Origin: Leucobacter sp. wl10
Lineage (GTDB): Bacteria; Actinomycetota; Actinomycetes; Actinomycetales; Microbacteriaceae
NCBI RefSeq assembly: GCF_003569785.1
Contig: NZ_KZ984001.1
Coordinates: 1 to 64,000 of the forward strand
Reading direction: 5' to 3'
DNA length: 64,000 nucleotides
Part shown: in pieces, positions 339 through 63,474 of the stretch
Position numbering within the stretch: the first letter of the stretch is position 1
Layout of the letters: every line of letters starts with the position of its first letter
Made by a program: the position numbers and the translations under genes
The notes under the pieces: model-generated
The model's input: the letters and a program-made list of their open reading frames with translations, nothing else
What the model was told of the DNA's origin: nothing
Database searches by the model: none

Positions 339-340
339 CA

Positions 341-3432: not shown

Positions 3433-3499
3433 GATCGGTGCCTTTCTCTGAGCGGGCGGTCGGGGAACACGCCGTATGCCTGCTCCTCCTCATCGCCCA

Positions 3500-3663
3500 T
3501 TGCCTTCCGGCACCTGCCGCTGGATGGGCGCGGGAGCGGCTGGTCAAGGCCGATAGAGCGCACAAGTTCTCGGCCGCAGCTGAGCGGCAGCGGGCGGTCG
3601 AGAAGTTTTCGCGTGCCTTGACGAGCTGCTCGCGCGTCCGCACAATCCAGACCCGGAAGGCAA
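3500..3663 (-). promoter_or_regulatory. Stem-closed promoter element, copy 1 (upstream of 3432)
   Basis: Arms TTGCCTTCCGG (3500-3510) and CCGGAAGGCAA (3653-3663) are perfectly complementary over 11 bases. Just inside the right arm, on the plus strand, TTGACG (3618-3623) and CACAAT (3641-3646) are 17 bases apart and would point away from the gene in duplex DNA. The overall design matches nine other copies in this window. The rest of 3433-3794 shows no convincing gene. Confidence 0.65.
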
Positions 3664-3782
3664 CGGCGTAGCCGGTGCCCCAGCTGCACGGGAGTGCGAG
3701 CTGCATTATCTGCGCGCACCCGGTGAGGGTGCGTTCTCCGCGATGCGACCTGTCCGTCGCGCTGGCGTGCTACGGAAAGTGC

Positions 3783-7625: not shown

Positions 7626-7657
7626 GATCTCGTTCCTTCCTGCCGCGCCCGGAGTGG

Positions 7658-7788
7658 GTGTGTCGGCAGGGGCCGGCGATAACGGGGCGAGCGATGCCGG
7701 AGCACGCGACGCGCCGACCCACGAGTGGGGCGGGCGCGGGCGCCGTGCGCAGGTCGGGGAAGTCTCGTAGCCTGCTCCCCCGACACAC
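7658..7788 (-). promoter_or_regulatory. Stem-closed promoter element, copy 2 (upstream of 7625)
   Basis: Arms GTGTGTCGG (7658-7666) and CCGACACAC (7780-7788) pair over 9 bases. On the plus strand, GTGCGC (7745-7750) and TAGCCT (7768-7773) are 17 bases apart, and the -10 ends 6 bases before the right arm. The minus-strand core GCAGGCTACGAG is shared with the copy at 57115-57300. From 7789 to 7940 I see nothing else apart from a short GACCGCC-type tandem repeat near 7910. Confidence 0.65.
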
Positions 7789-7940
7789 TGCCGGGCTGCG
7801 TGCAGGGACGCGGTGCGCGATCTTAGCTGGCACCTGAAGGCGGCACTCTGACCAACGCATAGCCAGGCTCAGCGGCAGGCCTCCTCGCAGCGGGGGACAC
7901 TCATGCGACCGCCGACCGCCGACCGCCGAGGGGCGCATCC

Positions 7941-31212: not shown

Positions 31213-31214
31213 GC

Positions 31215-40834: not shown

Positions 40835-40886
40835 CCTGTTCCTTCTCTCTCAGCTCTGTCCATCGGAAACCACTGACCCGTACGGG

Positions 40887-52378: not shown

Positions 52379-52773
52379 GGCTCGGCCAGCCGTTCCACCG
52401 CCGCGCTCAGCCTCGGGTAGAGCGCGCGGAACTCCGCGATGACGGCCTCCGCCTCTTTCGGGAAGCGGCTCTCGGTGTTCGCATACTTCGCCAGCTGGTT
52501 CGCGTTGTTCGCGATCGACCCCACCTCGCGCCGTAGCGCGAACAGCTCCGCGATCGCCTGCTTGCGCTCCGCGCTCGTCTCCACATCGGACGCGAGCGCC
52601 GCCTCGAACATGAGCCGCGGCACGTCAACCCCGGCGGCTCGCGCGCGGGCCTCGAGCTCGGCCTGCTCGCGCGCCGAGGCCTTCACGGTGTAGCGCTTCG
52701 CGCGCTTCTCCCCCGCCGGCGCGTTCGCGCGACGACGGCGGCCGAGGATCCCTCCGTGTTCCTGATCAGGCAT
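52375..52773 (-). CDS. mobC: MobC-like relaxosome protein
   Basis: A 132-residue protein with basic N-terminus (RRRRANAPAGEKRAKRYTVK) and ribbon-helix-helix-like segment, then EVGSIANNANQLAKYANTES, the MobC signature (N-x-N-Q). It binds and opens oriT for the relaxase. Coupled to the relaxase by overlap. Confidence 0.9.
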   Translation of the reverse strand: MPDQEHGGILGRRRRANAPAGEKRAKRYTVKASAREQAELEARARAAGVDVPRLMFEAALASDVETSAERKQAIAELFALRREVGSIANNANQLAKYANTESRFPKEAEAVIAEFRALYPRLSAAVERLAEP

Positions 52774-52861
52774 CCCAGCACCTCCTCCGCCAGCGCAGCG
52801 ACCCCGCCTCCGTGCGGGGCGTCTGAGGCCAGTATGCGCCTCGGCTCCCGAAAGGGCAAGC

Positions 52862-52880
52862 GACTTAGTGCAACTAAGTC
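52862..52880. other. Candidate oriT hairpin
   Basis: GACTTAGT-GCA-ACTAAGTC, a perfect 8-base inverted repeat in an AT-rich patch just upstream of mobC, the usual place of oriT. The nic site itself cannot be read off; it probably lies within about 40 bases on the side of TATAGCTTGCTCC. Confidence 0.55.
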
Positions 52881-53004
52881 TATAGCTTGCTCCGTCAGAG
52901 ACTCCGCTAGAAGCCGCGTCAGCGGCCCTCCGCTCGCAGAGCGGTGAGAGCGGGAGCCTGCGGCTCCGCGATCTGTTGGCCGGCTGCGCCGGCGGGCAAC
53001 TCCG

Positions 53005-53152
53005 TTGCCTTTCGACTGCGTGATGGTACGCGCAGTTCCCCGACCGTCAAGGGCTTTCGCGGCATATCCTCCCTCGCTGCGCTCAGTCCGGTATTCCACG
53101 TTCCCTTGACGGCCGTCTCCCTGCGTGAAGTTCGGCAGGTGCCGAAAGGCAA
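53005..53152 (+). promoter_or_regulatory. Stem-closed promoter element, copy 3 (upstream of 53178)
   Basis: Arms TTGCCTTTCG (53005-53014) and CGAAAGGCAA (53143-53152), extendable to 13 pairs. On the minus strand TTGACG (53045-53050) and TACCAT (53023-53028) are 16 bases apart, near the arm distal to the gene, as in the other copies but in mirror orientation. The inner text GGCATATCC and CCGGTATTCCACG is shared with copies 5 and 9. GAGGAG and the ATG follow 15-25 bases later. Confidence 0.65.
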
Positions 53153-53177
53153 TGGAGATCTGAGAGAGGAGAGCGCC

Positions 53178-53516
53178 ATGTACGCGAATATCGCTGAGCG
53201 AATCGAGGTCGTCGCCGAGGGGTGCGCGGCTCCGGCGGAAGCAGTCGAGGTGGTGGTCTACAGCAAGCCGAGCTGCATGCAGTGCCAGATGACCTATCGG
53301 GCGCTCGACGGTAAGGGCGTCCCCTACCGGGTCGTCGACCTCACCGAGGATACCGAGGCCCTGGCCTACGTCACCGAGGAGCTCGGGTATGCGGCGGCGC
53401 CGGTCGTCGTCGTCGGCGGCCGCGATCACTGGGCCGGGTTCCGGCCCGATGAGATCGACCGGGCGGCCGCCGGACTGCTCGAGCAGGGGGTACTGGCTGA
53501 GGAGGTGCGGTCGTGA
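53178..53516 (+). CDS. NrdH-like glutaredoxin
   Basis: A 112-residue protein with a 26-residue extension before the fold. EVVVYSKPSCMQCQMTYRAL has the CxxC of NrdH redoxins, and LGYAAAPVVVVGGRDHWAGF carries the cis-Pro and the substrate-binding end. It donates electrons to ribonucleotide reductase or other thiol enzymes. ATG 53178 follows GAGAGGAG. A copy from the same family lies at 59767. Confidence 0.88.
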   Translation: MYANIAERIEVVAEGCAAPAEAVEVVVYSKPSCMQCQMTYRALDGKGVPYRVVDLTEDTEALAYVTEELGYAAAPVVVVGGRDHWAGFRPDEIDRAAAGLLEQGVLAEEVRS

Positions 53517-53737
53517 ACGGCGAGGCTCCTGAGCCGCTCGAGCTGTTCCTTGTCCCAACGGAGGCGGCGGCGCAGCTGGGGGTCTCTGTGCGCAAGTTGC
53601 GCCGCTTGCGGCAGGCCGAGGTCGGGCCGGCCTACTTCACGATCGGCTCACGCATCCGCTACCTCGCCGCCGACGTCGCGCAGTGGCGCAGCGACCACCC
53701 CGATGGGGTGCAGATCCCCCGTCGACGAGCGGCGTGA
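53513..53737 (+). CDS. Excisionase/MerR-like HTH protein
   Basis: A 74-residue protein. VPTEAAAQLGVSVRKLRRLR, followed by GPAYFTIGSRIRYLAADVAQW, is a typical winged helix of the AlpA/Xis kind. The GTG start overlaps the redoxin stop (GTGA). May regulate excision or transfer genes. Confidence 0.82.
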   Translation: MNGEAPEPLELFLVPTEAAAQLGVSVRKLRRLRQAEVGPAYFTIGSRIRYLAADVAQWRSDHPDGVQIPRRRAA

Positions 53738-53801
53738 CAGCTGATGCGAGAGGTTCCTCTCTGGGGAGCGCGAGGGGCGGCGGGTTGCAGCGGCTGCCGG
53801 G

Positions 53802-54212
53802 TCAGTTCCAGTAGCGCGGGTTGAGGACGGTGTCGCCGTCGTAGTCGAGAGCGAGCACGGCGTGTCCGAGGCGGTCGATCGTGATCTCGTCGATCTTCGC
53901 GTGCACGCTCCCGGTGCGGAGCACGCGCACCTCGACGTCGATGAGGTCGAGGGCGGTAAGACTGATCATGACGGCCATGCGCCGGGCGGCCTGGCCGCGT
54001 CCGCGCTGTGTCATCGGCAGGATCGACGCGATGAACATCAGGCCGCCCATCTGGTCGGTGCCGGGGACGGCGCGCAGCTCGCGCGCGCCGAGGGAGAACA
54101 GGATGCCGGGGCCGAGCGCCTGGCGGAAGTAGTTGCCGATGTGAGCGGCCCGCTCACGCACCTCCGGGTCATCGGTGAACAGTTCTGCGGCGGTGAATGG
54201 GATCTGGATCAT
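53802..54212 (-). CDS. Hypothetical protein behind a stem-closed element
   Basis: A 136-residue protein (MIQIPFTAAELFTDDPEVRE) of alpha/beta type, with VMISLTALDLIDVEVRVLRT and HAVLALDYDGDTVLNPRYW at the end. No known family. AGGAGGGAAGAGCCC directly before ATG 54212 is a strong ribosome binding site. Element copy 4 lies 24 bases upstream. A candidate leading-region establishment or anti-defence factor by position only. Confidence 0.65.
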   Translation of the reverse strand: MIQIPFTAAELFTDDPEVRERAAHIGNYFRQALGPGILFSLGARELRAVPGTDQMGGLMFIASILPMTQRGRGQAARRMAVMISLTALDLIDVEVRVLRTGSVHAKIDEITIDRLGHAVLALDYDGDTVLNPRYWN

Positions 54213-54235
54213 GGGCTCTTCCCTCCTAGTTGTTG

Positions 54236-54420
54236 TGCCGTTGATGGCACCTGGTGCCAGCGCGGGCACGACGGCGGAGTGCCACTGCAGCGGGGATCCC
54301 GCGAGGCCGACCGTCGGGAGAGACGCGGGAGGGCACTGCGTGGAGGGAGCGCGTGCAGCGCGCGACCGGGCGGTGGCGTGGAGCGGAGGGGCCGCTATGC
54401 TGCCGCAGGCATCAACGGCA
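54236..54420 (-). promoter_or_regulatory. Stem-closed promoter element, copy 4 (upstream of 54212)
   Basis: Arms TGCCGTTGAT (54236-54245) and ATCAACGGCA (54411-54420). Plus strand: GTGGCG (54373-54378), 17 bases, TATGCT (54396-54401), then 9 bases to the right arm. A small hairpin GGCACCTGGTGCC follows the left arm and GCCGCAGGC precedes the right arm. Confidence 0.7.
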
Positions 54421-54524
54421 AACACTCGTGCGTAGCACAGGGAGGCGTCGCCCGGTTCGGGCGTCGACGCGGCCGCCCTCCGTCGGCGGCCGCCGCAGCT
54501 CGGCGAGCTGCCGTCGTGGGGAGC

Positions 54525-54544
54525 GCGAGGGGTGCGCCCCTCGC
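54525..54544 (-). terminator. Conserved GCGAGGGG hairpin after the DUF3560 gene
   Basis: GCGAGGGG-TGCG-CCCCTCGC. The same hairpin follows other genes of this region (55822, 56703, 57401, 62271). A second hairpin CAGCTCG-G-CGAGCTG lies at about 54496-54510. Confidence 0.6.
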
Positions 54545-54578
54545 CCGCCGCCCGTGCGGGGCGGCGGGCTGCAGGCGG

Positions 54579-55538
54579 CTATTCGCTCGACTCGGGCGGC
54601 GGGTCGCCTGCGGGTCGGTGTTCCTGCACCTCGACCCACGGGCTGCGATCCGTCCAGGAATAGGCGGTCTCGACGCTCACGGTCTTCGTGTTGACGCGGG
54701 CGACCGTCCACCAGTTGCCGCGGATCTTCACGGCGTCGCCCTTCGTGACGTTGTGCGGGCCGTAGTTGGTGGCGCGGCCGCTCGCGATCTGCTCGGCGCG
54801 CACCTGCTCCCAGTAGGCGAGCTGGTCGCGGAGCCGCTCGAGTAGTGGGGCGGCGAGCTCCGCCCGCCGTGCGACCTGTTCCTCGGTCGGACACACATAG
54901 CCCTGCTCGCGGTCGTACCAGTCCTCCACGATCCGCCGTTCGGCGCGGCGAATATCGGCAGAGAGCTTCTCGATGCGGTTCGCGACGGTGACGGGGGCGT
55001 AGCGGGCTCCGGTGGTGTGCGTGGCGGTCTCGGCGCGCCGTGCGGCTTCGGCTGCCTCGGCGTCGGCGGCGACCGCCTGCCCCATCCTGCGGTGCGCCCG
55101 GTCGAGGGCGTTGCGGTGCCGGTTCTCGCTGTGGTGGCCGATCTTGATCGGCTCCCCCATCGGCGGGAGCGCGTCCCCGGCGGCCTCGGCGCGCGCCCAG
55201 GCCTGCGCTGCGGCGTCGTCCTTGCGCTCGGCCTTCGCCTCGAGCGCGACGATGCGCTCGAGCTGTCGGGCGGCCTTGTCCGCCTCGACTTCGGCGGTGC
55301 CGCGCGGGGTGCGGTCGAGCTGCGTCGTCACCTCGTAGCCGGCGGCCTCAAGCGCGGCGACGGTGCGGGTGATGACGTGATCCTTCGGCAGCCGGTCGCG
55401 GCTGTGCGGGACGTACCAGGCTCCGATGCTGCGGCCCCAGCGCCAGCCGTGCGCCTTGAGGATCGGCGCGGTGCCGTCGCCTCTGGTGGTGCCGTCGATG
55501 AGGGTTCCGGCTTCGTCGGTGTGTGTGATGGTGAGCAT
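54579..55538 (-). CDS. DUF3560-domain protein
   Basis: A 319-residue protein. The N-terminal half (GWRWGRSIGAWYVPHSRDRL) and the signature PIKIGHHSENRHRNALDRAH at about 134-155 match DUF3560 proteins, common on actinobacterial plasmids and phages. The long charged helix (TPRGTAEVEADKAARQLERI) suggests a coiled coil. Molecular role unknown. AAAGGGAG precedes the ATG; element copy 5 lies upstream. Confidence 0.82.
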   Translation of the reverse strand: MLTITHTDEAGTLIDGTTRGDGTAPILKAHGWRWGRSIGAWYVPHSRDRLPKDHVITRTVAALEAAGYEVTTQLDRTPRGTAEVEADKAARQLERIVALEAKAERKDDAAAQAWARAEAAGDALPPMGEPIKIGHHSENRHRNALDRAHRRMGQAVAADAEAAEAARRAETATHTTGARYAPVTVANRIEKLSADIRRAERRIVEDWYDREQGYVCPTEEQVARRAELAAPLLERLRDQLAYWEQVRAEQIASGRATNYGPHNVTKGDAVKIRGNWWTVARVNTKTVSVETAYSWTDRSPWVEVQEHRPAGDPPPESSE

Positions 55539-55562
55539 GGCTCTCTCCCTTTCGTTTTTTGC

Positions 55563-55716
55563 CCGTGAAGGCACGCAGTGCCGCGCAGGGAGCGGAGCCG
55601 GAGCGCCGGCAACCGTGGAATACCGGAGCGGCGGAGCGCAGCGCGGGACGCGAGGATATGCCGCGAAAGTGCTGGCGTGCAGGATCGGCGACCGTAGACT
55701 GCCGCAGGCTTCACGG
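55563..55716 (-). promoter_or_regulatory. Stem-closed promoter element, copy 5 (upstream of 55538)
   Basis: Arms CCGTGAAG (55563-55570) and CTTCACGG (55709-55716). Plus strand: CTGGCG (55672-55677), 17 bases, TAGACT (55695-55700), then 8 bases to the right arm. The centre holds GTGGAATACCGGAG and GAGGATATGCCGCGAAAG, shared with copies 3 and 9. Confidence 0.7.
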
Positions 55717-55821
55717 TCAAACAACGTCCTCGATCGGGGCGCGGCCGGGGATCCGGCCGACCGTCGGCCGCCCTCTGTCGGCGGCCGCTGTGCAGCTCGT
55801 CGAGCTGCCATGCCGGGGAGC

Positions 55822-55841
55822 GCGAGGGGCACGCCCCTCGC
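55822..55841 (-). terminator. Conserved GCGAGGGG hairpin after the 55880 gene
   Basis: GCGAGGGG-CACG-CCCCTCGC, 38 bases past the stop, with CAGCTCG-T-CGAGCTG beyond it. Confidence 0.6.
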
Positions 55842-55879
55842 CCGCCGCCCGGACTGGGCGACGGACTGGGTGTCGCGCG

Positions 55880-56395
55880 TCAGGGCCGGATCTCGCCGCC
55901 GATCTGCAGCGCGGCCATGAGTGTTTCGGCGAGATCCCAGAGGGGTTCGATCTCCGCATCGTTGCTGTTACCGCTCGCGGCGGCGCAGGCGGCGCGGTGG
56001 GCCTCGGCGATCGCTTCCTCGGTCTGCGGGAGCAGCACGGCGAGCTGGCTGTGGCTTTCCTTGGTCGGGAACACGAGCGATTCCGCGAGCACGCGCATGC
56101 GGTAGGCGGGCTGCTGGAATGGGCCGACGAGCACGGCCTCGATGAACGCGGCGATGCCGTTGCGGGCGAGGGTGTGGGCAAGGCCGGAGTGCTCGCTCCA
56201 ATCCTTGACGAACACCTCGCCGGGGCGGGCGACGAAGCCGGAGGCGAGCAGGTCGACGGTGAGCACCTCTTTCTCGCCGGTGTCGGGGTGCACGATCGCC
56301 AGGGCGTGCTGGCTGGGGTCGTACTCGATCCGCCCCTCGAGCACGACGTCGTTGAACGTGAGATAGGCGTTCTCGCGCAGGGTCTTCCAGGTCAT
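55880..56395 (-). CDS. Hypothetical protein behind a stem-closed element
   Basis: A 171-residue acidic protein (MTWKTLRENAYLTFNDVVLE). VLEGRIEYDPSQHALAIVHP suggests a beta-rich first half; the second half is helical (LLPQTEEAIAEAHRAACAAA). No family recognised. Of three adjacent ATG codons (56401, 56398, 56395) the third fits the AAGGAG site best. Element copy 6 lies 16 bases upstream. Confidence 0.65.
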   Translation of the reverse strand: MTWKTLRENAYLTFNDVVLEGRIEYDPSQHALAIVHPDTGEKEVLTVDLLASGFVARPGEVFVKDWSEHSGLAHTLARNGIAAFIEAVLVGPFQQPAYRMRVLAESLVFPTKESHSQLAVLLPQTEEAIAEAHRAACAAASGNSNDAEIEPLWDLAETLMAALQIGGEIRP

Positions 56396-56410
56396 CATCA
56401 TCTCCTTGTT

Positions 56411-56603
56411 TTCTTGCCGTTGATGGCACCTGGTGCCAGCGCGGGCGCGATCGCGGAGCGCCGCCGCAGCGCCGGGCCCCGCGCGGCCGAGCGGAGCGAG
56501 AGACGCGCGAGGGCGGCGCGTGGAGGGAGGCTGCGGCGCAGCTGACCGGCGGTGGCGCGCAGCGGAGTGGCCGCTATGCTGCCGCAGGCGTCAACGGCAA
56601 GAA
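56411..56603 (-). promoter_or_regulatory. Stem-closed promoter element, copy 6 (upstream of 56395)
   Basis: Arms TTCTTGCCGTTGA (56411-56423) and TCAACGGCAAGAA (56591-56603), 13 perfect pairs. Plus strand: GTGGCG (56552-56557), 17 bases, TATGCT (56575-56580), then 10 bases to the right arm. Pairing continues inside the stem except for a bulge at the -10. Confidence 0.72.
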
Positions 56604-56702
56604 CACGGGCATCGCCCGTGAGGGGTCGGCGACCCGCACGGGTCGTCCGCTCGCCGGCCTCCGTCGTCGGCGTGCAGCTCGTCGAGCTGCACTGTGGGGA
56701 GC

Positions 56703-56722
56703 GCGAGGGGTGCGCCCCTCGC
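56703..56722 (-). terminator. Conserved GCGAGGGG hairpin after the 56756 gene
   Basis: GCGAGGGG-TGCG-CCCCTCGC, 33 bases past the stop, with CAGCTCG-T-CGAGCTG at about 56674-56688. Confidence 0.6.
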
Positions 56723-56755
56723 CCGCCCGCCGCTCGGGTCGGCGGGCGGTGCGGC

Positions 56756-57079
56756 TCATCCGAAGACGAGTTCCCCGTAGAGGGCGCGTTGCAGGATCTG
56801 GTCGGCGTCCTCGGCGCAGAAGTTGTCGGGGTCGGGGCAGCACAGCGCCCGCGTTCCTCGCGCTTGGGTGAACACCGCGCGGAGGCGCGTGGCGGTGAGG
56901 ATGGTCGCGTGCTTCGCCCGGTAGCAGGGGCAGACTCCGGCGGGGTCGTCGCAGTCCGGGGTGCAGTGCCGCACGCGCAGCGCGCCGCGGCCGAGGCACT
57001 CGATCCCCCAGACCCAGGGCGCGTACTGGACGTCGTGGCTGCCGTCGATGGCTTCGGCGAGACTGGTGCGGTTCGACAT
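56756..57079 (-). CDS. Cys-rich small protein behind a stem-closed element
   Basis: A 107-residue protein. RHCTPDCDDPAGVCPCYRAK and RALCCPDPDNFCAEDADQIL give seven Cys and a nearby His in two clusters, so one or two zinc sites are likely. No family recognised. ATG 57079 has AAGGGA upstream; element copy 7 lies 36 bases upstream. Confidence 0.65.
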   Translation of the reverse strand: MSNRTSLAEAIDGSHDVQYAPWVWGIECLGRGALRVRHCTPDCDDPAGVCPCYRAKHATILTATRLRAVFTQARGTRALCCPDPDNFCAEDADQILQRALYGELVFG

Positions 57080-57114
57080 GAGGGGGTTTCCCTTCTCTCC
57101 ACTCCACGAGTCCG

Positions 57115-57300
57115 TCCCGTGAAGGCACGAGAGTGCCGGTCGGAGGGCGCGCTGCAGAGCGCCACCGCAGCGGCGCACCCCGCGCGACCGAACCGGGTTC
57201 GAGGCGCGCGAGGGGGCCGCGTCGAGCCCGGCCGCGCAGCGGGCGGGCGTGCGGTGGCGCGGCGCGGGGCGCCTCGTAGCCTGCCGCAGGCTTCACGGGA
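57115..57300 (-). promoter_or_regulatory. Stem-closed promoter element, copy 7 (upstream of 57079)
   Basis: Arms TCCCGTGAAG (57115-57124) and CTTCACGGGA (57291-57300). Plus strand: GTGGCG (57254-57259), 17 bases, TAGCCT (57277-57282), then 8 bases to the right arm. The -35 region GCGGTGGCGC is exactly complementary to GCGCCACCGC in the left half, so it would be double-stranded in the folded form. Confidence 0.72.
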
Positions 57301-57400
57301 AGGGCTCGGGCACCGCCCGCGTGGGGAGGTCGACCCGGCGGGTCGTCCTTGGGCCGGCCTCCGTCGCCGGCGCCGCAGCTCGACGAGCTGCTCGGGGAGC

Positions 57401-57420
57401 GCGAGGGGCACGCCCCTCGC
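57401..57420 (-). terminator. Conserved GCGAGGGG hairpin after the 57457 gene
   Basis: GCGAGGGG-CACG-CCCCTCGC, 36 bases past the stop, with CAGCTCG-A-CGAGCTG at about 57375-57390. Confidence 0.6.
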
Positions 57421-57456
57421 CCGCCGCGCGGTGCAGCGGGCGAGGGTGCCGTGGAT

Positions 57457-57954
57457 CTAGCAGATCTCGAATCCGCCGCAGCCGCGGAGGAAGGCGGCGA
57501 ACCCCTTGACGTTCTCGGCGTCGAAGGGGTAGTGCGTCTCCCAGGCGGGGGTGCGGCCGGTGCCGCTGCAGCCGTTGCAGCCGCCCTTGCCAGTGTCGGG
57601 GTCGCGCGGCTGATCGTAACCGTACTCCTGTCCGATCGCGTCGGTGCGGATGCCTGCGCCGCGGCAGATGGTGCACTCCTCATCGGGGAGCGCGCCCACT
57701 TCCGCCTCGTACCGCCGGGCGTACTCGGCGACCTTGCCGGAGGCCAGATCGCGTTCGATCGCCTCGGCCAGTGCGAGCGAGGTCGCCGCGTCGAGCCCGT
57801 CGCCGTCGTTGCTGTGCCAGTAGGTGCACGCCTCGGTGAGGTCGGGGTAGGTCGTGAGGAGGAAATCTGCGAGCGGGTGCCACCACCAGACGTTGTTGCG
57901 GAAGTACTCCCCCGCGTCGGTGGTCGGCGCCTTGCCGTATACGTCCATGCCCAT
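57457..57954 (-). CDS. DnaJ-type zinc-finger protein
   Basis: A 165-residue protein. MGMDVYGKAPTTDAGEYFRN and NNVWWWHPLADFLL form the N-terminal domain. CTICRGAGIRTD and GCNGCSGTGRTP are two CxxCxGxG-type zinc knuckles as in DnaJ. The C-terminal end (FAAFLRGCGGFEIC) is typical of a plasmid/phage family of unknown role. AAGGAG is 8 bases before ATG 57954. Element copy 8 lies upstream. Confidence 0.75.
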   Translation of the reverse strand: MGMDVYGKAPTTDAGEYFRNNVWWWHPLADFLLTTYPDLTEACTYWHSNDGDGLDAATSLALAEAIERDLASGKVAEYARRYEAEVGALPDEECTICRGAGIRTDAIGQEYGYDQPRDPDTGKGGCNGCSGTGRTPAWETHYPFDAENVKGFAAFLRGCGGFEIC

Positions 57955-58008
57955 TGCTTCGTCTCCTTACTGCTGACTGCCAGCTACTTGGTCGCCCTCA
58001 CGTTTTCC

Positions 58009-58197
58009 TTCCGTGAAGGCACGAAGTGCCGGTGCGGTCACGCAGCGAAGCGCCACCGGGAGCGGCGGGCCGCGCGCGGCCGAGCTGCAGGCGAGTGACG
58101 TGCGAGCACGCGGCGGCAGGCGGGGCCCGAGTATCGGGGTTCGCCGGCCGGTGGCGCGCAGCAGCGGGGCCGGTATCCTGCCTCCGGCTTCACGGAA
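58009..58197 (-). promoter_or_regulatory. Stem-closed promoter element, copy 8 (upstream of 57954)
   Basis: Arms TTCCGTGAAG (58009-58018) and CTTCACGGAA (58188-58197), extendable by five pairs after one mismatch. Plus strand: GTGGCG (58151-58156), 17 bases, TATCCT (58174-58179), then 8 bases to the right arm. CCGGTGGCGC in the right half is exactly complementary to GCGCCACCGG in the left half. Confidence 0.72.
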
Positions 58198-58273
58198 TGA
58201 AAATCGGGGCACAGCCCCGAGGAGTCGAGTGCGCGCGGTGCGCGCTCCTCCGTGCCGGCCCGGAGGAGGCCGG

Positions 58274-59069
58274 CTACCGGCCGAGACCGGCGTCGGGCCC
58301 GTGTCGCCCGCCGCTGCGGGGGCTCGGGCTGCCGTAGGTGTTCGGTGTCTGCGGTGCCGGTGGTACCGCGCGCGGAGCCGCCGGGGTGTCCATGCCGGCG
58401 ATCCGGGCGGCGGTCATCGGGTCGATCCCCGGCGGGCGGATGCCGAGGCGTTCGACGTCGCCCTGGCCGCGATCATCGCGGCGGGTCACGATGCCCGTGA
58501 ACATGTCGCACAGCGGGCCGAGGTCGCGCTGTTCGGTAGCGATGCGTGACGCCTCGTTGTTCACCTCGCCGTGGACGCTGCGCCAGTCGAGGTTCCATCC
58601 GGCGTCGGCGGCGATGCGGTTCCAGAGCAGCCGCTGCGCACGTCCGTTGCCCTCGCGGAACGGGTGAATATAGTTCCACTGGTCGTAGTGATAGCTCAGC
58701 CGCTCGATGAACTGCGGCCGGTCGAGGCCGCGCAGCATCTGATCCTCGCGCAGCTCACCGGCGGCGAAGCTCGCGGCCCGGTCGATCATGTGGAAGGGGA
58801 GGAAGAACTCGGCGCCCTCGTGCTGCTTGCGCATGTCGATGGCGCAGCTGGCCCGCCCAGTCGTAGACGTCCTGGAACAGGTGCCGGTGGATGGCTCGGA
58901 GCTCGTCGAGATCCCCGGTCGCTCGGACGGGGGTGTCGACGAGTTCGACGGCTCGGGCGAAGGTCAAGGCGCCTTCGGCCGAGGCGAGGTCGGCGCGCGT
59001 GAACGCGCCGACCTCGTTGCGGAGGATCCCGGCGGCCGGGTCGAGGTAGGGGTCGACGATTTCAGGCAA
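58274..59069 (-). pseudogene. Frameshifted Fic-domain toxin
   Basis: From TTG 59069 the frame gives YLDPAAGILRNEVGAFTRAD and RHLFQDVYDWAGQLR. It then loses frame near 58845. The correct text resumes one base out of phase at MRKQHEGAEFFLPFHMIDRA and contains the full Fic motif HPFREGNGRAQR. Fic enzymes AMPylate target proteins. A one-base gain or two-base loss breaks it, unless the reading is a sequencing error. Confidence 0.82.
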
Positions 59070-59257
59070 GGCCGTAGCGTGCTCGAGCGCGCGCTACCAG
59101 CTCGTGCGAGTCGATCCGTCCGGCAACGTAGTCGTCGGCGTCGGCGCGGGTGTCGACGTCGACGTGCAGGCCTTCCATTTCGCCGCTGTGCATGGCGTCC
59201 TCGACGATGCGCGCGCTCCTCGGATACGGCGGCTGCGGTGTGCCGGGTGTCGGTCAT
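59062..59257 (-). pseudogene. Frameshifted VbhA-like antitoxin of the Fic toxin
   Basis: It starts MTDTRHTAAAVSEE at ATG 59257 (GGAGG upstream) and shifts frame near 59210. It then reads RIVEDAMHSGEMEGLHVDVD with the S-x-x-x-E-G inhibitory motif of class I Fic antitoxins, and RIDSHELVARARARYGLA before TGA 59062-59064. It overlaps the Fic start. Both partners are broken, as expected once the toxin is lost. Confidence 0.75.
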
Positions 59258-59291
59258 GGTCGCCTCCTTCACGCGCGGGGTTTCTGCTCCT

Positions 59292-59323
59292 ATTCTACCG
59301 TGCGCCCCTGTCATTGACAGGGG
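59292..59323 (-). promoter_or_regulatory. Promoter/operator of the VbhA-Fic pair
   Basis: TAGAAT on the minus strand (59292-59297), with a 19-base palindrome CCCCTGTC-ATT-GACAGGGG (59305-59323) just upstream over the -35 region. Probably the binding site of the antitoxin or antitoxin-toxin complex. Confidence 0.5.
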
Positions 59324-59387
59324 CTCACGGGCGCTGCGTCGCGGGTTCGAGGGGCCGGCGGGTGCCGGCGCCCTCTCCCGCTGCTCA

Positions 59388-59747
59388 CTACTCGTCGCGG
59401 GGCTTCCGCGTGATGACGGCGGTGGCGTGGGTGAGCGAGACGGCGACGTCGTCGGCGTCGATTACCCGCCCGTATTGCTTCTGGCCGTTCGCGTCGTCCC
59501 ATGAACTCGAGTACTCGTTGCCGGTGACGACGACCTTGTCACCGCGGTGAGCCGTCGCCATCACGTTCTCGCCGAGCTCGAACTTAGCCTCGACGAAGTG
59601 CGTGGTGGGGGTGTCGTGTTCGATGAACTTCCCGCCCCGGTACTCGCCGGTGTTCTCGATGACGCGGAACTTGACGATGGTGATCTGTCCGGCCTGCACC
59701 TCTTCGGGGTCGGCGGCCAGACGGCCCTTGATGGTTCGGTAACCCAT
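59388..59747 (-). CDS. ssb: Single-stranded DNA-binding protein
   Basis: A 119-residue OB-fold protein. MGYRTIKGRLAADPEEVQAG, HFVEAKFELGENVMATAHRG and GDKVVVTGNEYSSSWDDANG match the SSB core without the usual acidic tip. ATG 59747 has GGAG 7 bases upstream, better than 59753. It coats incoming or replicating single-stranded DNA. Behind the redoxin gene under element copy 9. Confidence 0.85.
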   Translation of the reverse strand: MGYRTIKGRLAADPEEVQAGQITIVKFRVIENTGEYRGGKFIEHDTPTTHFVEAKFELGENVMATAHRGDKVVVTGNEYSSSWDDANGQKQYGRVIDADDVAVSLTHATAVITRKPRDE

Positions 59748-59766
59748 GATCATTCTCCTTCTGGTG

Positions 59767-60009
59767 TTAGTGATTGGTGGCGATGCGGTCGATGTGGTCA
59801 GGGCGGAAGCCCACCCAGTGGTCGCAGTCGCTGACGACGACGACCGGAGCGCTCGAGTAGCCGAGTTCCTCGGTGACGTAGGCCAGGGCCTCTTCGCTCT
59901 CGCTGAGGTCGACAGCCTGGTAGGGGATGCCGTGCTCGTCGAGTGCGCGGTAGGTGAGTTGGCACTGCATGCACCTCGGGGTGCTGTACACGATGACTGG
60001 CTTGTCCAT
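59767..60009 (-). CDS. NrdH-like glutaredoxin, second copy
   Basis: An 80-residue protein. MDKPVIVYSTPRCMQCQLTY has CMQC as in the 53178 protein, and ELGYSSAPVVVVSDCDHWVG the cis-Pro. ATG 60009 follows GGGAGG. The core is clearly related to the first copy, without its N-terminal extension. Heads an operon with ssb. Confidence 0.88.
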   Translation of the reverse strand: MDKPVIVYSTPRCMQCQLTYRALDEHGIPYQAVDLSESEEALAYVTEELGYSSAPVVVVSDCDHWVGFRPDHIDRIATNH

Positions 60010-60036
60010 CTGTCTCACACCTCCCGATCAACCATT

Positions 60037-60197
60037 TTTCTTTGCCTTCCGGCATGAGAGATCGAGTGTGAGCGGGAGCGGCGGAGTGCCTGGTCGTGGA
60101 ATACCGGAGCCGTGCAGCGGCGGAGGATATGCCGCGAAAGCCCGGAACGGCAGTCGCGGAGCGAGCTACGATCGGCTTGCCGGGAAGGTCAAAGAAA
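60037..60197 (-). promoter_or_regulatory. Stem-closed promoter element, copy 9 (upstream of 60009)
   Basis: Arms TTTCTTTGCCTTCCGGCA (60037-60054) and TGCCGGGAAGGTCAAAGAAA (60178-60197) pair over 18 bases with two single-base bulges. Plus strand: GGAACG (60144-60149), 17 bases, TACGAT (60167-60172), then 5 bases to the right arm. The rest of 60010-60374 shows no gene. Confidence 0.68.
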
Positions 60198-60374
60198 TCA
60201 GGGGAATGCAGCGCCGCGTAGCGGCTCCTCTGGCGCGCCTCCGTGCGCGCTCGGCTGTGCATCCTGCTCCCCCGCTCTGTTCTGCGGGCCGAGACGTCTT
60301 CGGCTCAGTTCGTGCGGCCTATCATACCTTTTGAGGGGAAAATCGCACTTATTCGAGTGGAGCAAGGGCGGAGG

Positions 60375-60752
60375 CTATGGCTCTTCGGTCGTCTCCGGCT
60401 CGTCAAACCAGCGGATGACGCTGTTAGCGTTGAGGGCGCCGCGCAGCTCGTCCGCTGCGGTGCGGAAGGCGGCTGAGGCGCGGTCGAGCCCGGCAGCGGT
60501 CTGTGCGGCGCCGGTGCCGTCGCCGCGATTGTCCTCGCCGTCGTAGTGCACGCCGTCCTGCGTCCGGCGATGCCAGGCAGCGAGTTGCTCGGACACTTGG
60601 GCGAGGTGGTCGCTCGTGTCGCGGACGTCTCCGATCATCCGGTAGGAGTCGATCGGGCTCGCCACGGTGCGGGTGGAGTGGGCGAGGGTGCGTGCCGTCT
60701 CCTCAAGCTCGGCGGCGATCGCTGCTTGAGACTGCTCCTCGTTGATAGCCAT
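60375..60752 (-). CDS. Hypothetical helical protein downstream of parAB
   Basis: A 125-residue, mostly helical protein (MAINEEQSQAAIAAELEETA; SDHLAQVSEQLAAWHRRTQD). GAGGAGC lies before the ATG, and the gene starts 2 bases after the parB-like stop, so it is part of the partition operon. No family recognised. Confidence 0.65.
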   Translation of the reverse strand: MAINEEQSQAAIAAELEETARTLAHSTRTVASPIDSYRMIGDVRDTSDHLAQVSEQLAAWHRRTQDGVHYDGEDNRGDGTGAAQTAAGLDRASAAFRTAADELRGALNANSVIRWFDEPETTEEP

Positions 60753-60754
60753 GA

Positions 60755-61258
60755 TCAGCTCCTCTCCCCCAGCGTCAGCCCGAGGGAGCGCCGGAGCGCG
60801 GCCTCGTCACCGCCGTCGAGTTCGTCGGCGCGCGCGAGCAGCAGGTCGACGGCGACGCGGATGAGCGTGTTGTCGGTGATGCGATCCGCGTCGGGGGCCT
60901 TCATCCGGTTGAGACGCCGCGCGCGGAAGGTGAGCTCGGTGAGTTGATCGTCGCGCAGCCGGGTTTCCTTCCGCGCGAAGCGCAGGTAGGGCGGCAGTAC
61001 GGTGTCGCTGACGCTCGGTGTTGCCGCGGCGCGGGCCTTAGGCGCGCGTCGCGGCCGCGCAGAGCGTACGGCCTTCTTCGGTGCGAGCGTCTCCTCGACC
61101 GGCACGGCGGCCGCGGCCGCCGTGGTCTCCGGGGTCGGCTCCGGCGGCAGCTCGGGAACCGGCGCGAGTGGTGCTGCCGCCGCGTCGGGAACGATGCGGA
61201 GTCTGGCCTCGTCGCCTCCCGGCCCGGTGAGCATGTCCGTGAGCTTGGTGCGTGCCAT
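60755..61258 (-). CDS. ParB-like centromere-binding protein
   Basis: A 167-residue protein with a long Pro/Ala linker (LAPVPELPPEPTPETTAAAA), a basic stretch ([20 protein letters not shown]), then a C-terminal domain LRDDQLTELTFRARRLNRMK and ITDNTLIRVAVDLLLARADE that looks like a ribbon-helix-helix. It lies directly after parA (5 bases), the usual place of small type Ib ParB/ParG partners. It likely binds the iterons at 61.9-62.1 kb. Confidence 0.75.
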   Translation of the reverse strand: MARTKLTDMLTGPGGDEARLRIVPDAAAAPLAPVPELPPEPTPETTAAAAAVPVEETLAPKKAVRSARPRRAPKARAAATPSVSDTVLPPYLRFARKETRLRDDQLTELTFRARRLNRMKAPDADRITDNTLIRVAVDLLLARADELDGGDEAALRRSLGLTLGERS

Positions 61259-61263
61259 GAGAG

Positions 61264-61923
61264 TTATGCTCCGATCTGGCTCTTGGTGTTCGCCCAGAGG
61301 CTCATGAGCTCGAGCGCGACGCGGCGGAAGTCTTCGAGCGCCCTGGGCGAGCTGCGGGAGTCCGAGAGGGTGAACTGCGTGACGACCTTGCCGTGCACCG
61401 ATCCCATCTTGTTCACCTTGTAGTCCCGGATCGAGGAGGCGAATCTGGCGACGTTCGCGCTGTCGAGCAACGCTTCGGCGTCATCGAGCTCGGCCGGGAC
61501 GCGGGTGTCCACCTTGTTGATCACGACGCGGTACGGCACCCCCGAGGGCAGCACGATCTTGGTGATCGTCTCGACGAGCGGGCCGAACGACAGCGGCGCG
61601 GGTTCGGTGGGGAGAATCACGAAGTCGGAGGCGGTGAGGACGGTTGCCAGTACATCGTGGCCGACGAGTGATCCGGGGGTATCGACCAGGACGACGTCGT
61701 AGGGTGTCTCGCGGAGTCGGGCGAGGTTCGCGGGGTCGGTGTCGTCGGCGACGTCGAACGGCAGCGACTCCCCTGCTCGGTCGGCCCACCATGCCGAGGA
61801 CTTCTGCTGGTCGACGTCGACCACGAGCACGCGCGAGTGCTCGGAGAGGACGGCGGCGAGATTCATGGTGAGGGTGGTTTTGCCGGCGCCGCCCTTCTGG
61901 TTGGCGATCGTGACGATGTACAT
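61264..61923 (-). CDS. parA: ParA partition ATPase
   Basis: A 219-residue deviant Walker A ATPase. TIANQKGGAGKTTLTMNLAA, VDVDQQKSSAWWADR and VVLVDTPGSLV are the ParA/MinD motifs. The lack of an N-terminal HTH makes it type Ib. ATG 61923 is used; the site upstream is weak (GAGAGCC). It moves the replicon to daughter cells with the ParB-like protein. The iteron array lies directly upstream. Confidence 0.92.
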   Translation of the reverse strand: MYIVTIANQKGGAGKTTLTMNLAAVLSEHSRVLVVDVDQQKSSAWWADRAGESLPFDVADDTDPANLARLRETPYDVVLVDTPGSLVGHDVLATVLTASDFVILPTEPAPLSFGPLVETITKIVLPSGVPYRVVINKVDTRVPAELDDAEALLDSANVARFASSIRDYKVNKMGSVHGKVVTQFTLSDSRSSPRALEDFRRVALELMSLWANTKSQIGA

Positions 61924-61937
61924 GGCTCTCATTCAAT

Positions 61938-62143
61938 CTGTAAGTCTGTAAGTTCCGAAGTCTGTAAGTCGGCGTGTTGTGAAATGACTTACAGAGTCTG
62001 TCAGTCTGTAAGTTACAGAGTTACCGAGTTACAGAGTCTGTCAGTTCGGAAGTACCGGAGTTACAGAGTAACAGACTTCCGAACTCTGTAAGTTCCAAGT
62101 CAGAATCTGTAACTCTGTAAGTTCCGAAGTCTGTAACTTACAG
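61938..62143. repeat. Iteron array, probable parS centromere and par promoter
   Basis: CTGTAAGT occurs forward at 61938, 61946, 61962, 62006, 62086 and 62115. ACTTACAG or near forms occur reversed at 61987, 62011, 62027, 62059, 62067 and 62136, and CTGTAACT at 62107 and 62131. At least 14 copies of an 8-base unit lie in about 205 AT-rich bases right before parA. Confidence 0.8.
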
Positions 62144-62270
62144 AGTCGTTTTCGCACGTCGCGCTCTCCGTTGCGCGGCACTCGTTCCGGTAGGGTGAGT
62201 TGACTCAAGGGCTAAAAGTCGCTCAGATGGGCGACCAGGGGCGTTTCCGGTAGGATTCTGTCGGGGGAGC

Positions 62271-62290
62271 GCGAGGGGATCACCCCTCGC
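62271..62290 (-). terminator. GCGAGGGG hairpin, copy near ardC
   Basis: GCGAGGGG-ATCA-CCCCTCGC. It lies past a second, longer hairpin (62317-62362) behind the ArdC-like gene. Confidence 0.55.
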
Positions 62291-62316
62291 CGGCCGCTGC
62301 GCGGCTGAACGCACCG

Positions 62317-62362
62317 GAACGGGGTGCCCGACGTATCTGGTCGAAACTGTGGCACCCCGTTC
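62317..62362 (-). terminator. Long hairpin behind the ArdC-like gene
   Basis: GAACGGGGTGCC (62317-62328) pairs perfectly with GGCACCCCGTTC (62351-62362) around a 22-base loop, 14 bases past the stop at 62376. Confidence 0.55.
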
Positions 62363-62375
62363 TCGCCTGCGACGA

Positions 62376-63239
62376 TCAGTCGGCGTCAGTGTCCGGGTCT
62401 GTGACCTCGGTGATGGCGGCGAGGATGCGGTGCGCGGTGTCGATGACGCGCACGCCCGAGGCGCGGAGCACGTCGCGGTCGCCGCGCGTCCAGGTGGCGA
62501 TGTAGCCGATGCTGTTCGCGCTGGTGTCCTGCCCGAGCGTTCCGGCGACAACGTAGGCGATGGATTCCGCTTCGGCTTCGTAGAGGCCCTGGTGCTGGTG
62601 GTACTCGTTCATCTCGACGGGGAGGAGGCCGTGCGCGGCTTCGTGCAGGATCGTGAGCGAGGCGTGCGCGGGTTCGAGGGATTCCTCGATGCGCATGATC
62701 CGGCTGCGGGGGTCGGTGTGCCCGTCTTCGCCGGAGAGGGGCGACCGTTCGACCGTCCAACCGTCCTCGGTCAGCCAGGCATAGGCTGCCTCGTAGATCC
62801 CGGCGTTGTCTCCGCCGCGCAGTCGGGGTGCCGGGTCGGGGATCTGATCGGCGCCGGGGATGGGGTCAGTCTGGCTGATGTCGAACACGCGGCGTTGCGG
62901 CCAGTACACCTGCACCTTGTCCTCGCCGCTGTCTTCGGCATGCTCGATCGTCTTGACCTGTCGGCCGATGATCTTGATGTGCTTCTCGCCTGCGCGTACC
63001 TGGCGCCCGAGCTTCTGCCAGGTGCGATAGCCGGCGACGCGGGTCGCGTGCGGGCACTGCGCGCGGATGAGCAGCAGATTGTTCAGGCTGTAGCGGCGGA
63101 ACAGCGTTGCCATCCGCAGCACGTTGGCCCACGTCTCGCTGTCGGTGAGCGCGTCGACCTGCTCGGCAATCATGGCGTGCAGCTGCTCGAGTTCGGCGCG
63201 ACGCTCGGCGGGGCTCTTGCGGGTCTTGATCTTGGTCAT
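62376..63239 (-). CDS. ArdC-like antirestriction protein
   Basis: A 287-residue protein. The N-terminal DNA-binding part has RMATLFRRYSLNNLLLIRAQ and GYRTWQKLGRQVRAGEKHIK, the ArdC N-terminal pattern. The C-terminal zincin has LTILHEAAHGLLP (HExxH) and a downstream YEAEAESIAYVVAG Glu motif. ArdC-type proteins protect single-stranded incoming DNA from host restriction. ATG 63239 fits the GAGGGAG site better than 63242. Element copy 10 lies upstream. Confidence 0.88.
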   Translation of the reverse strand: MTKIKTRKSPAERRAELEQLHAMIAEQVDALTDSETWANVLRMATLFRRYSLNNLLLIRAQCPHATRVAGYRTWQKLGRQVRAGEKHIKIIGRQVKTIEHAEDSGEDKVQVYWPQRRVFDISQTDPIPGADQIPDPAPRLRGGDNAGIYEAAYAWLTEDGWTVERSPLSGEDGHTDPRSRIMRIEESLEPAHASLTILHEAAHGLLPVEMNEYHQHQGLYEAEAESIAYVVAGTLGQDTSANSIGYIATWTRGDRDVLRASGVRVIDTAHRILAAITEVTDPDTDAD

Positions 63240-63265
63240 CATGTCTCCCTCGTCGTTGTTCCGGG

Positions 63266-63419
63266 CTGTCCGGCAGGGAGATTCGTGCGTGAGCGGGAGC
63301 CGCGGGAGTGCCTGGCGGGGGAGCGGTTGCTAAGCGCAGGGCCGCAGGCCCGGAGTCTGCAAATAGCGAGCGCCGGGAACGGCGAGCGGCGGAGCGAACG
63401 AGGATCGGTCGCCGGACAG
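63266..63419 (-). promoter_or_regulatory. Stem-closed promoter element, copy 10 (upstream of 63239)
   Basis: Arms CTGTCCGGC (63266-63274) and GCCGGACAG (63411-63419). The text between is clearly related to copy 9 (GAGCGGGAGC; GGAACGGCGAGC; GAGGATCGG). The promoter-like pair is weaker here: GGAACG (63376-63381), 18 bases, GAGGAT (63400-63405). Confidence 0.6.
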
Positions 63420-63474
63420 TCAGGAGCAGAGAAGGGTTGGGCCGGCCGAGAGGCCGGCTCCGTTCAGCGGGGGG

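What the first reader, a model, noticed from the sequence alone, without database searches (positions are those of the whole stretch)
53005..63419. Ten stem-closed promoter elements: candidate single-strand DNA promoters of a leading region
Seen in the sequence: ten intergenic elements of about 130-195 bp (3500, 7658, 53005, 54236, 55563, 56411, 57115, 58009, 60037, 63266), each 15-75 bases upstream of a backbone gene. Each is closed by 8-18 complementary bases that differ between copies but keep pairing. Just inside the gene-distal arm nine have a -35/-10-like pair: GTGGCG-17-TATGCT (two copies), GTGGCG-17-TAGCCT, GTGGCG-17-TATCCT, CTGGCG-17-TAGACT, GTGCGC-17-TAGCCT, GGAACG-17-TACGAT, TTGACG-17-CACAAT, TTGACG-16-TACCAT. 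The -10 ends 5-10 bases from the arm and points away from the gene. The tenth is weaker. Known: in Frpo-type promoters the transferred single strand folds so that RNA polymerase reads the gene on the 5' side. Inferred: folding here would turn these promoters towards the genes. The downstream genes (SSB, ArdC-like, redoxins, unknowns) mostly point towards oriT, as leading-region genes do.
Basis: partly seen in the sequence, partly recalled or inferred. Interest (0 to 1): 0.96.

Follow-up and report, generated by a model that had tools for sequence, protein, structure and literature searches.

The report
Pan-bacterial single-stranded DNA promoter family
Eleven stem-forming DNA elements on this probably actinobacterial plasmid, four of which share a core found on mobile DNA of several bacterial phyla and on the E. 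coli F plasmid, are predicted to act as promoters only while the DNA is single-stranded, which would let an incoming plasmid switch on its protective genes before its second strand is made.

Summary
In detail: stem-closed elements with promoter-like hexamers sit upstream of leading-region genes. Four of eleven elements (53040-, 55600+, 60081+, and contig position 65118+, outside the window) carry a conserved core, CGTGGAATACCGGA-[hairpin]-GAGGATATGCCGCGAAAG, inside a covarying stem. The core occurs on plasmids, phages and IS elements of several phyla; the F-plasmid copy matches 3,402 of 5,426 complete E. coli genomes, nearly always on plasmids. Covariation is strong; flanked G.T versus C.A pairs (53:6) show which strand folds. 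A -10-like box sits at a fixed distance in 90 of 148 copies, and the closing stem tends to begin at the predicted start site. All 72 identifiable 5' neighbours are read from the folding strand as template. In rolling-circle elements the core lies on the Rep-coding strand, 15 of 15 loci (about nine lineages). Classical Frpo1/2 of F lack the core. Best reading: single-stranded-DNA promoters and priming sites that work like Frpo but are not sequence homologues. One sub-class next to oriT (53005) lies on the inferred retained strand, an unexplained exception. No transcription data exist here.

The parts
53003..53156 (-). Core-bearing element, upstream of nrdH-like gene (53178, +) on one side and oriT/mobC on the other; R1 core match 53040-53114, 83 bits
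   Evidence: class A model only E 0.18
54234..54424 (+). Class A element upstream of gene 53802-54212(-)
55562..55720 (+). Core-bearing element upstream of DUF3560 gene 54579-55538(-); core 55600-55683, 67 bits; class A model also matches it end to end (E 7e-7)
56415..56604 (+). Class A element upstream of gene 55880-56395(-)
57116..57302 (+). Class A element upstream of gene 56756-57079(-)
58010..58199 (+). Class A element upstream of gene 57457-57954(-)
60037..60190 (+). Core-bearing element upstream of NrdH-like (59767-60009,-) and SSB (59388-59747,-) genes; core 60081-60154, 61 bits
   Evidence: closing arm not significant in the ungapped test; not listed by the class A model
63264..63421 (+). 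Stem-closed element without either core, upstream of ArdC-like gene 62376-63242(-)
3499..3664 (+). Stem-closed element with TTGACG-17-CACAAT, no core; upstream of gene 3127-3432(-)
7657..7790 (+). Stem-closed element, no core; upstream of gene 7230-7625(-); closing arm not significant
52859..52894 (+). Putative oriT: inverted repeat GACTTAGT/ACTAAGTC followed by CTATAGCTTGCTC; motif found once in the window and in 12 of 13 related loci (window included)
   Evidence: nick site and polarity by analogy with R388 (recalled), not shown
52375..52773 (-). MobC / NikA-like relaxosome protein
   Evidence: PF21983, PF05713
50804..52378 (-). Relaxase
   Evidence: PF03432
53178..53516 (+). Glutaredoxin/NrdH-like gene that points away from oriT
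   Evidence: PF00462
59388..59747 (-). Single-strand DNA-binding protein
   Evidence: PF00436
62376..63242 (-). ArdC-like anti-restriction protein
   Evidence: PF08401

Best explanation
These elements are predicted to be promoters that form only when their DNA strand is single: the strand would fold on itself, host RNA polymerase would bind the folded hairpin, and the RNA would run out of the hairpin along the 5' flank, reading the neighbouring gene and possibly priming second-strand synthesis. Shown by sequence: a conserved core, a covarying inner stem P2, a closing stem P1, a -10-like TANNNT at a fixed place in most copies, and every identified 5' neighbour read from this strand as template. 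Inferred: that this strand is the one that becomes single (transferred strand in conjugation, Rep-coding strand in rolling-circle elements). Inferred geometry: with the start site at the first base of P1, TANNNT falls at -12 to -7 (partly unpaired), the -35 position lies inside paired P2, and the conserved A/T internal loop of the core falls near -51 to -47, where the UP element and the alpha-subunit C-terminal domain act in ordinary promoters (recalled). Inferred function of the core: an RNA-polymerase contact common to bacteria, which would explain why it hardly varies across phyla. In the window the set would switch on SSB, ArdC, NrdH, DUF3560, ParB-like and unknown genes soon after entry and fall silent once the DNA is duplex.
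For: Covariation on 42 sequences: score 0.366 vs 0.134 shuffled (0/500) and at most 0.171 when slid; 15 of 21 pairs change on both sides, a weaker measure that 13 of 500 shuffles reach. The core pair 24/66 is C-G in 40 rows, T-A in ColIb-P9 and G-C in P. monteilii. Folding strand: G.T flanked by Watson-Crick pairs 53 vs C.A 6 in P2 of 167 copies. -10: TANNNT at offsets 25-29 in 90 of 148 copies, about 5 expected from mononucleotide shuffles. P1: score >=8 in 84 of 129 copies vs 21.8 expected with shuffled partners; in 57 of the 84 the 3' arm starts at offset 38-43. DNA-parameter folds of the 90: -35 region paired, -10 mixed, P1 paired from 12 nt after the -10 start. Core positions outside the exact search pattern are also conserved: CGTG before it in 134 of 135, AG after it in 133 of 135. 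Gene side: 72 of 72 identified 5' neighbours read from the element strand; of 29 identified 3' neighbours 20 face the wrong way for an ordinary promoter and 8 of the other 9 are mob genes. Strand rule: 15 of 15 on the strand of an HUH or Rep_trans gene (six pairs are close relatives, so about nine lineages); 20 of 34 relaxase/element pairs opposite to the relaxase, 13 of the 14 others being the oriT-adjacent sub-class (several pairs come from one plasmid). Copies in F and ColIb-P9 lie directly upstream of a DNA methylase gene, which I take for the M.EcoGIX homologue (not compared); M.EcoGIX and M.BceJIII are reported silent in their original hosts, and inverting oriT cut transfer into a restricting recipient (PMC7736820, passages; its authors note that other anti-defence genes may share in that). 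Genome: 4 of 4 copies on one mobile contig; E. coli 4,966 of 5,020 places on plasmids.
Against: No transcript or binding data. 58 of 148 copies lack TANNNT at offsets 25-29. The 53005 sub-class is on the inferred retained strand. In several tailed-phage-like contigs (L127, L133, L135, L138) an ORF lies 3' of the element on its own strand, and in L131 rep does, so a conventional duplex promoter would also serve there. In Geobacillus the copy is part of an IS256 and in Lachnospiraceae it follows a transposase-like gene, where no single-strand phase is established. One small MOBV plasmid (L141) breaks the relaxase rule. -35 hexamers are poor in many GC-rich copies. The species-genome loci were collected with an exact core pattern, so invariance inside that pattern is partly by construction. 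Class A and the three unclassified elements rest on few sequences; the class A model finds only 6 of 13 core-bearing elements tested significantly. An 11-base piece of the core (GAATACCGGAG) occurs in both F Frpo regions, but on the other strand, unexplained. Strong folding in GC-rich DNA is cheap; the case rests on covariation and fixed geometry, not on energy.
Confidence: 0.77

Rival explanations
1. Single-strand origins only: the folded element makes RNA primers for second-strand synthesis, and the nearby genes have their own expression.
For: Present in rolling-circle phages and an inovirus-like contig on the Rep-coding strand, in tiny MOBV plasmids with no annotated gene directly 5' of it, and inside IS256 copies.
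Against: A pure primer site would not need one copy before each of many genes (eight between 53 and 64 kb) nor 72 of 72 identified neighbours in one orientation at a median of about 85 nt. Frpo of F is said to do both jobs (PMC7736820, passages), so the two are not exclusive.
Confidence: 0.12
2. Ordinary duplex promoters pointing away from the 5' gene (for example for mobC-relaxase in the 53005 sub-class, for phage genes, or outward from IS elements).
For: In 13 loci the mob operon begins 3' of the element in the promoter's direct reading direction; several phage contigs have a same-strand ORF 3' of it; Geobacillus IS copies have TTGACA-17-CATGAT reading outward.
Against: Mob genes apart, 20 of 21 identified 3' neighbours within 350 nt are in the wrong orientation; does not explain stem covariation, strand-specific G.T pairs or the 5' gene rule.
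Confidence: 0.07
3. A structured RNA (leader, antisense or guide RNA) transcribed from the element strand.
For: Covariation alone cannot tell RNA from DNA; weak match to Bacillus-plasmid RNA RF01691 (22.5 bits, cut-off 31).
Against: The RNA would be antisense to the gene in plasmids but sense to rep in phages; only 'the strand that becomes single' unifies both. At least 48 of 147 hairpin loops are C-G-closed GNA triloops, stable in DNA (recalled). No Rfam family at threshold in the window, and none at the element in eight related loci.
Confidence: 0.04

Closest known systems
Frpo1/Frpo2 of F and ssi elements of ColIb-P9
   Same: Hairpins on the transferred strand upstream of leading-region genes, predicted -35 and -10 rebuilt in folded DNA, gene read from the same strand
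   Different: Local BLAST of the F Frpo2 region and the core region gave no cross-match at E 1e-3; the full core is absent from Frpo1/2 (only GAATACCGGAG, on the other strand); this core spans phyla
RNA-polymerase-dependent single-strand origins (ssoA/ssoU of rolling-circle plasmids, minus origin of M13; also sso1 of ICEBs1)
   Same: Active only as folded single strand, on the displaced or virion strand; RNA polymerase in several
   Different: I saw no mention of this core in the passages read (PMC4595007; M13 recalled); here many copies precede establishment genes
EGeRS1 regulatory sequences of pLS20
   Same: Repeated, structured sequences upstream of establishment operons including ardC
   Different: 420-750 bp, and by the authors' account the transferred strand there is not the template strand (PMC8708921, passages); model R1 lists nothing in pLS20 50000-65774, the rest of pLS20 not searched
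Bacillus-plasmid RNA, RF01691
   Same: Weak overlap with the 53005 element, shared GAGGGAGGATA-like stretch
   Different: Below the family threshold (22.5 vs 31 bits)

Membership tests
Frpo/ssi single-stranded-DNA promoters | Lies in the leading region on the transferred strand, upstream of genes that point to oriT | tested here: met
   Window (apart from 53005), F, ColIb-P9, pTZC1, Gulosibacter, Curtobacterium, B. cenocepacia, P. monteilii by annotation and relaxase or tra strand; not met for the 53005 sub-class
Frpo/ssi single-stranded-DNA promoters | Folded strand rebuilds -35 and -10 in a stem-loop | tested here: met
   Prediction only, and for 90 of 148 copies:
Frpo/ssi single-stranded-DNA promoters | Sequence homology to known Frpo/ssi | tested here: not met
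   (F Frpo2 region against F, ColIb-P9 and Serratia stretches); the other published candidate sequences are in a supplement that I could not read
Frpo/ssi single-stranded-DNA promoters | Transcribed from single but not duplex DNA | not testable with these tools
   needs bench work
Single-strand origin (sso / minus origin) | Lies on the strand displaced by rolling-circle replication | tested here: met
   15 of 15 on the Rep-coding strand, about nine lineages; that this strand is the displaced one is recalled
Single-strand origin (sso / minus origin) | Supports complementary-strand synthesis | not testable with these tools
   needs bench work
Bacillus-plasmid RNA RF01691 | Covariance-model score above the gathering cut-off | tested here: not met
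   22.5 vs 31 bits

The most novel reading that the evidence does not exclude
One pan-bacterial DNA module, not RNA and not protein, that host RNA polymerase reads as a promoter whenever any mobile element is single-stranded: on the transferred strand of conjugative plasmids from Actinobacteria to E. coli F, on the virion strand of filamentous phages, on the displaced strand of rolling-circle phages, and inside IS elements. Its core would be an UP-element-like handle folded from single-stranded DNA. The retained-strand copy next to oriT would be a donor-side version: exposed when the relaxosome unwinds oriT, it would make NrdH in the donor for replacement synthesis, while the transferred-strand copies make NrdH in the recipient.
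Probability: 0.4. Interest if true: 0.97.

Novelty: new variant of a known kind. Interest (0 to 1): 0.92.

Why it matters
Single-strand promoters have been catalogued mainly by similarity to a handful of proteobacterial sequences. A core conserved across phyla turns them into something that one covariance model can find, predicts which genes a plasmid would express first on entry, and links conjugation, filamentous phage replication and some IS elements through one likely RNA-polymerase signal. It also places an uncharacterised copy in the F plasmid itself, so the idea can be tested in standard E. coli K-12.

Tried and rejected
Rfam: no family at threshold in the window; in eight related loci only known F-plasmid RNAs. 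BLAST of the window element and of an inovirus copy against phage records: none. Class A model R2 over whole genomes failed twice for technical reasons; it was run on six held loci instead: of the 13 core-bearing elements there, 6 match at E 0.0016 or better, 4 at the right place but E 0.18-0.98, 3 are not listed. A naive longest-ORF context analysis was dropped: it gave left-neighbour strands of 70 minus to 67 plus because of spurious ORFs (105 of 146 elements 'overlapped' an ORF); the homology-based version replaced it and sees only neighbours related to 53 query genes (72 of 174 elements have one within 350 nt on the 5' side). The copies are not independent: most come from Microbacteriaceae and some from one plasmid. 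A first P2 register with a fixed two-base loop gave G.T 59 vs C.A 55; per-copy registers (loops of 1-3, G.T and C.A scored alike) gave 68 vs 13 overall and 53 vs 6 when flanked by Watson-Crick pairs. Phylum-wide sample: 1 of 296 genomes, our own, matches R1, so the family is patchy. Transposable-element (MITE) reading rejected: arms differ between copies and the gene side is fixed. pLS20-type regulation rejected (PMC8708921 passages).
Full report
WHAT IS THERE. The window is part of an 81-kb contig (C15) with a relaxase, MobC, a VirD4-type coupling protein, ParA and a ParB-like gene. I take it for a plasmid; an integrated element is not excluded. Between 53 and 65 kb genes run toward oriT: an NrdH/glutaredoxin (a second, 53178, points the other way), DUF3560, Fic, SSB, ArdC, ParA, ParB-like and unknowns.

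TWO KINDS IN THE WINDOW. Four copies (54236, 56411, 57115, 58009) form class A. Aligned, they keep P1 by two-sided changes and P2 (CGCCACC/GGTGGCG) mostly by one-sided changes that give G.T, not C.A, on the element strand. Three listed copies and the new one carry another apical part, the core. A model trained on class A alone (R2) matches core-bearing elements end to end: window 55562-55720 (E 7e-7), the four of Gulosibacter pARLON1 (5e-6 to 1.6e-3) and that of C. acnes pTZC1 (7e-5), 6 of the 13 core-bearing elements in the six sources; 4 more come up at the right place with E 0.18-0.98 and 3 not at all. So at least part of both kinds shares one outer shell.

THE CORE. BLAST of the 53005 element found 306 plasmid records, 204 typed conjugative, from Actinobacteria to Burkholderia, Pseudomonas, Serratia and Vibrio. 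Invariance inside the pattern is by construction in these, but the nine bases outside it that I checked are conserved too: CGTG before it 134 of 135, AG after it 133 of 135, the A after CCGG 135 of 135, GA before GGATATG 134 of 135. A 42-sequence alignment (A1; 42 of 167 copies kept after removing similar ones) gives the structure P2 / CGTGG-CCGCG / AATA-ATATG internal loop / CC-GG / P3. Its covariation score exceeds both controls. The core's own variable pair is C-G in 40 rows, T-A in the ColIb-P9 row (F is the same) and G-C in the P. monteilii row. Model R1 finds four copies in the own genome, all on C15, hits in 30 of 199 genomes of the family (own included) and, in an even sample of the phylum, only the own genome among 296.

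WHICH STRAND FOLDS. With P2 registered per copy, G.T pairs flanked by Watson-Crick pairs outnumber C.A 53 to 6 in 167 copies, and the T.G in CGTGG/CCGCG, found in every row of A1, would be A.C on the other strand; one copy has C-G there. The element strand, not its complement, appears to be under selection to fold.

PROMOTER GEOMETRY. TANNNT lies 25-29 bases after the core in 90 of 148 copies against about five expected; commonest are TACGAT (27), TATCCT (17) and TATGCT (9). P1, tested on 129 copies with dissimilar flanks, scores 8 or more in 84 against 21.8 with partners shuffled, and in 57 of the 84 its 3' arm starts at offset 38-43, the place of +1 for such a -10. DNA-parameter folding of the 90 copies shows the -35 position paired, the -10 partly open and P1 paired. 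Counting +1 at offset 39, the core's ATATG falls near -51 to -47. Hexamers at -35 are weak in GC-rich copies (GGCACG, CTTGCG, GGAACG), TTGAC-like in others.

WHICH GENE. Using 53 query proteins from the window and annotated plasmids, 72 of 174 copies have an identifiable gene within 350 nt on the 5' side; all 72 are on the opposite strand with the start facing the element, mostly 75-113 nt away: NrdH 25, ParB 16, methylase 8, ArdC 7, others 16. On the 3' side 29 are identifiable; 20 face the element head-on, 9 lie in its direct reading direction, 8 of these being mobC or relaxase. The queries favour plasmids; in phage contigs L127, L133, L135 and L138 an ORF lies 3' on the element's strand (a methyltransferase in L138).

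WHICH STRAND BECOMES SINGLE. Relaxase and element are on opposite strands in 20 of 34 pairs (not independent, four from pARLON1), which is the transferred strand if, as in F, ColIb-P9 and R388 (recalled), the relaxase gene lies on the lagging side. The oriT-like motif beside the mob genes in 12 of 13 loci agrees. In rolling-circle loci the element is on the Rep-coding strand 15 of 15 times (12 of the 14 viral contigs, in the other two no Rep was found, and 3 genome contigs; six pairs are close relatives). One, L140, is inovirus-like with pII-, Zot-like and secretin (pIV) genes; the element lies about 1 kb beyond pIV on the strand of these genes, with one small ORF between and predicted ORFs of the other strand around it; M13 has its RNA-polymerase-primed minus origin beyond gene IV (recalled). 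So the relation to coding flips between plasmids and phages while the relation to the presumed single strand stays.

THE F PLASMID. F and ColIb-P9 each have one copy in the stretches examined, 71.6 bits, about 106 nt upstream of the DNA methylase gene and on the strand opposite to the tra/nik genes. F's Frpo1 and Frpo2 do not match it by BLAST; they hold GAATACCGGAG on the other strand, which I cannot explain. [quoted passage not shown] I saw no sequence of it there. Passages of PMC10104558 name ssi3-1 as promoters of three operons within about 12 kb of oriT, with ssb, psiBA and ardA among their products; the methylase is not named there, and the ColIb-P9 copy lies about 16 kb from nikA.

EXCEPTIONS. 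(i) The 53005 sub-class: in 13 loci the element lies 5' of the mob operon on the same strand, which I infer to be the strand retained in the donor; in 7 its 5' neighbour is NrdH, in the other 6 none was identified within 350 nt. It may be a mob-operon promoter, a donor-side single-strand promoter, or both. (ii) IS context: in Geobacillus pGeo12b three IS256 copies carry it between stop codon and right end; in Lachnospiraceae it follows a gene that weakly matches DDE transposases; in a Desulfovibrio bin an IS3-type one. (iii) 58 of 148 copies lack TANNNT at the main offset. (iv) L141.

LITERATURE. Seen as passages only: PMC11541004 (Frpo homologues by BLAST from five known sequences plus candidates; its supplement was not readable here, so overlap with some copies is possible), PMC9849209, PMC8708921, PMC7736820, PMC10104558, PMC8744291, PMC12826799, PMC4595007. 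Searches for a published description and for the core's letters (one unrelated hit) turned up none in this library, which lacks most subscription journals. Masai and Arai 1997, Nomura's ssi survey, the M13 minus origin, R388 nicking and GNA triloops are recalled or known from citations.

VERDICT. Works like Frpo: likely. Is Frpo by descent: tested by BLAST, not met. A widely conserved structural class of single-stranded-DNA promoter/priming element, not described in what I could search, is the most economical account.

Noticed in passing
L144:2691-4200, 30711-32200, 39914-41400: IS256-family copies in Geobacillus pGeo12b carry the core between the transposase stop codon and the right inverted repeat; a DDE-transposase-like gene of Lachnospiraceae is also followed by it.
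   Followed up: partly
L140:980-1057: Inovirus-like contig (pII, Zot-like, secretin pIV) with the core on the strand of these genes about 1 kb beyond pIV, broadly where M13 has its minus origin (recalled).
   Followed up: partly
L138:3221-3297 and relatives L127, L129, L130, L133-L135, L137: Contigs with an HUH replication initiator (terminase and portal checked in L138), core just downstream of rep; in L138 a DNA methyltransferase gene follows on the same strand.
   Followed up: partly
L141, L142: MOBV plasmids of 2.6-3.1 kb carry one copy each, good minimal systems to test priming.
   Followed up: partly
61937-62140: Dense short repeats of CTGTAAGT / CTGTCAGT type upstream of the ParA gene, perhaps a partition site or iterons.
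   Followed up: no
54520, 55815, 56697, 57396, 62265, 63470: Recurrent GGGGAGCGCGAGGGG-type stems between genes, probably terminators shared by the leading-region cassettes.
   Followed up: no
window 53040-53114: Sub-threshold similarity to Bacillus-plasmid RNA RF01691 (22.5 bits); that orphan family may itself be a single-strand DNA element.
   Followed up: partly
L154:13533-13547 and 18923-18937: Both Frpo regions of F contain GAATACCGGAG, a piece of the core, on the strand opposite to the transferred one.
   Followed up: no
E. coli records H151-H156 and plasmid hits: The F-type core lies under a 'hypothetical protein' annotation in the six E. coli records listed and in nearly all of the 40 plasmid records listed, probably a spurious reading frame.
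   Followed up: no
window 1-672; L003:15431-17069: IS3-like transposase pieces by eye at both ends of the contig, so the element is probably broken at an IS in the assembly.
   Followed up: no
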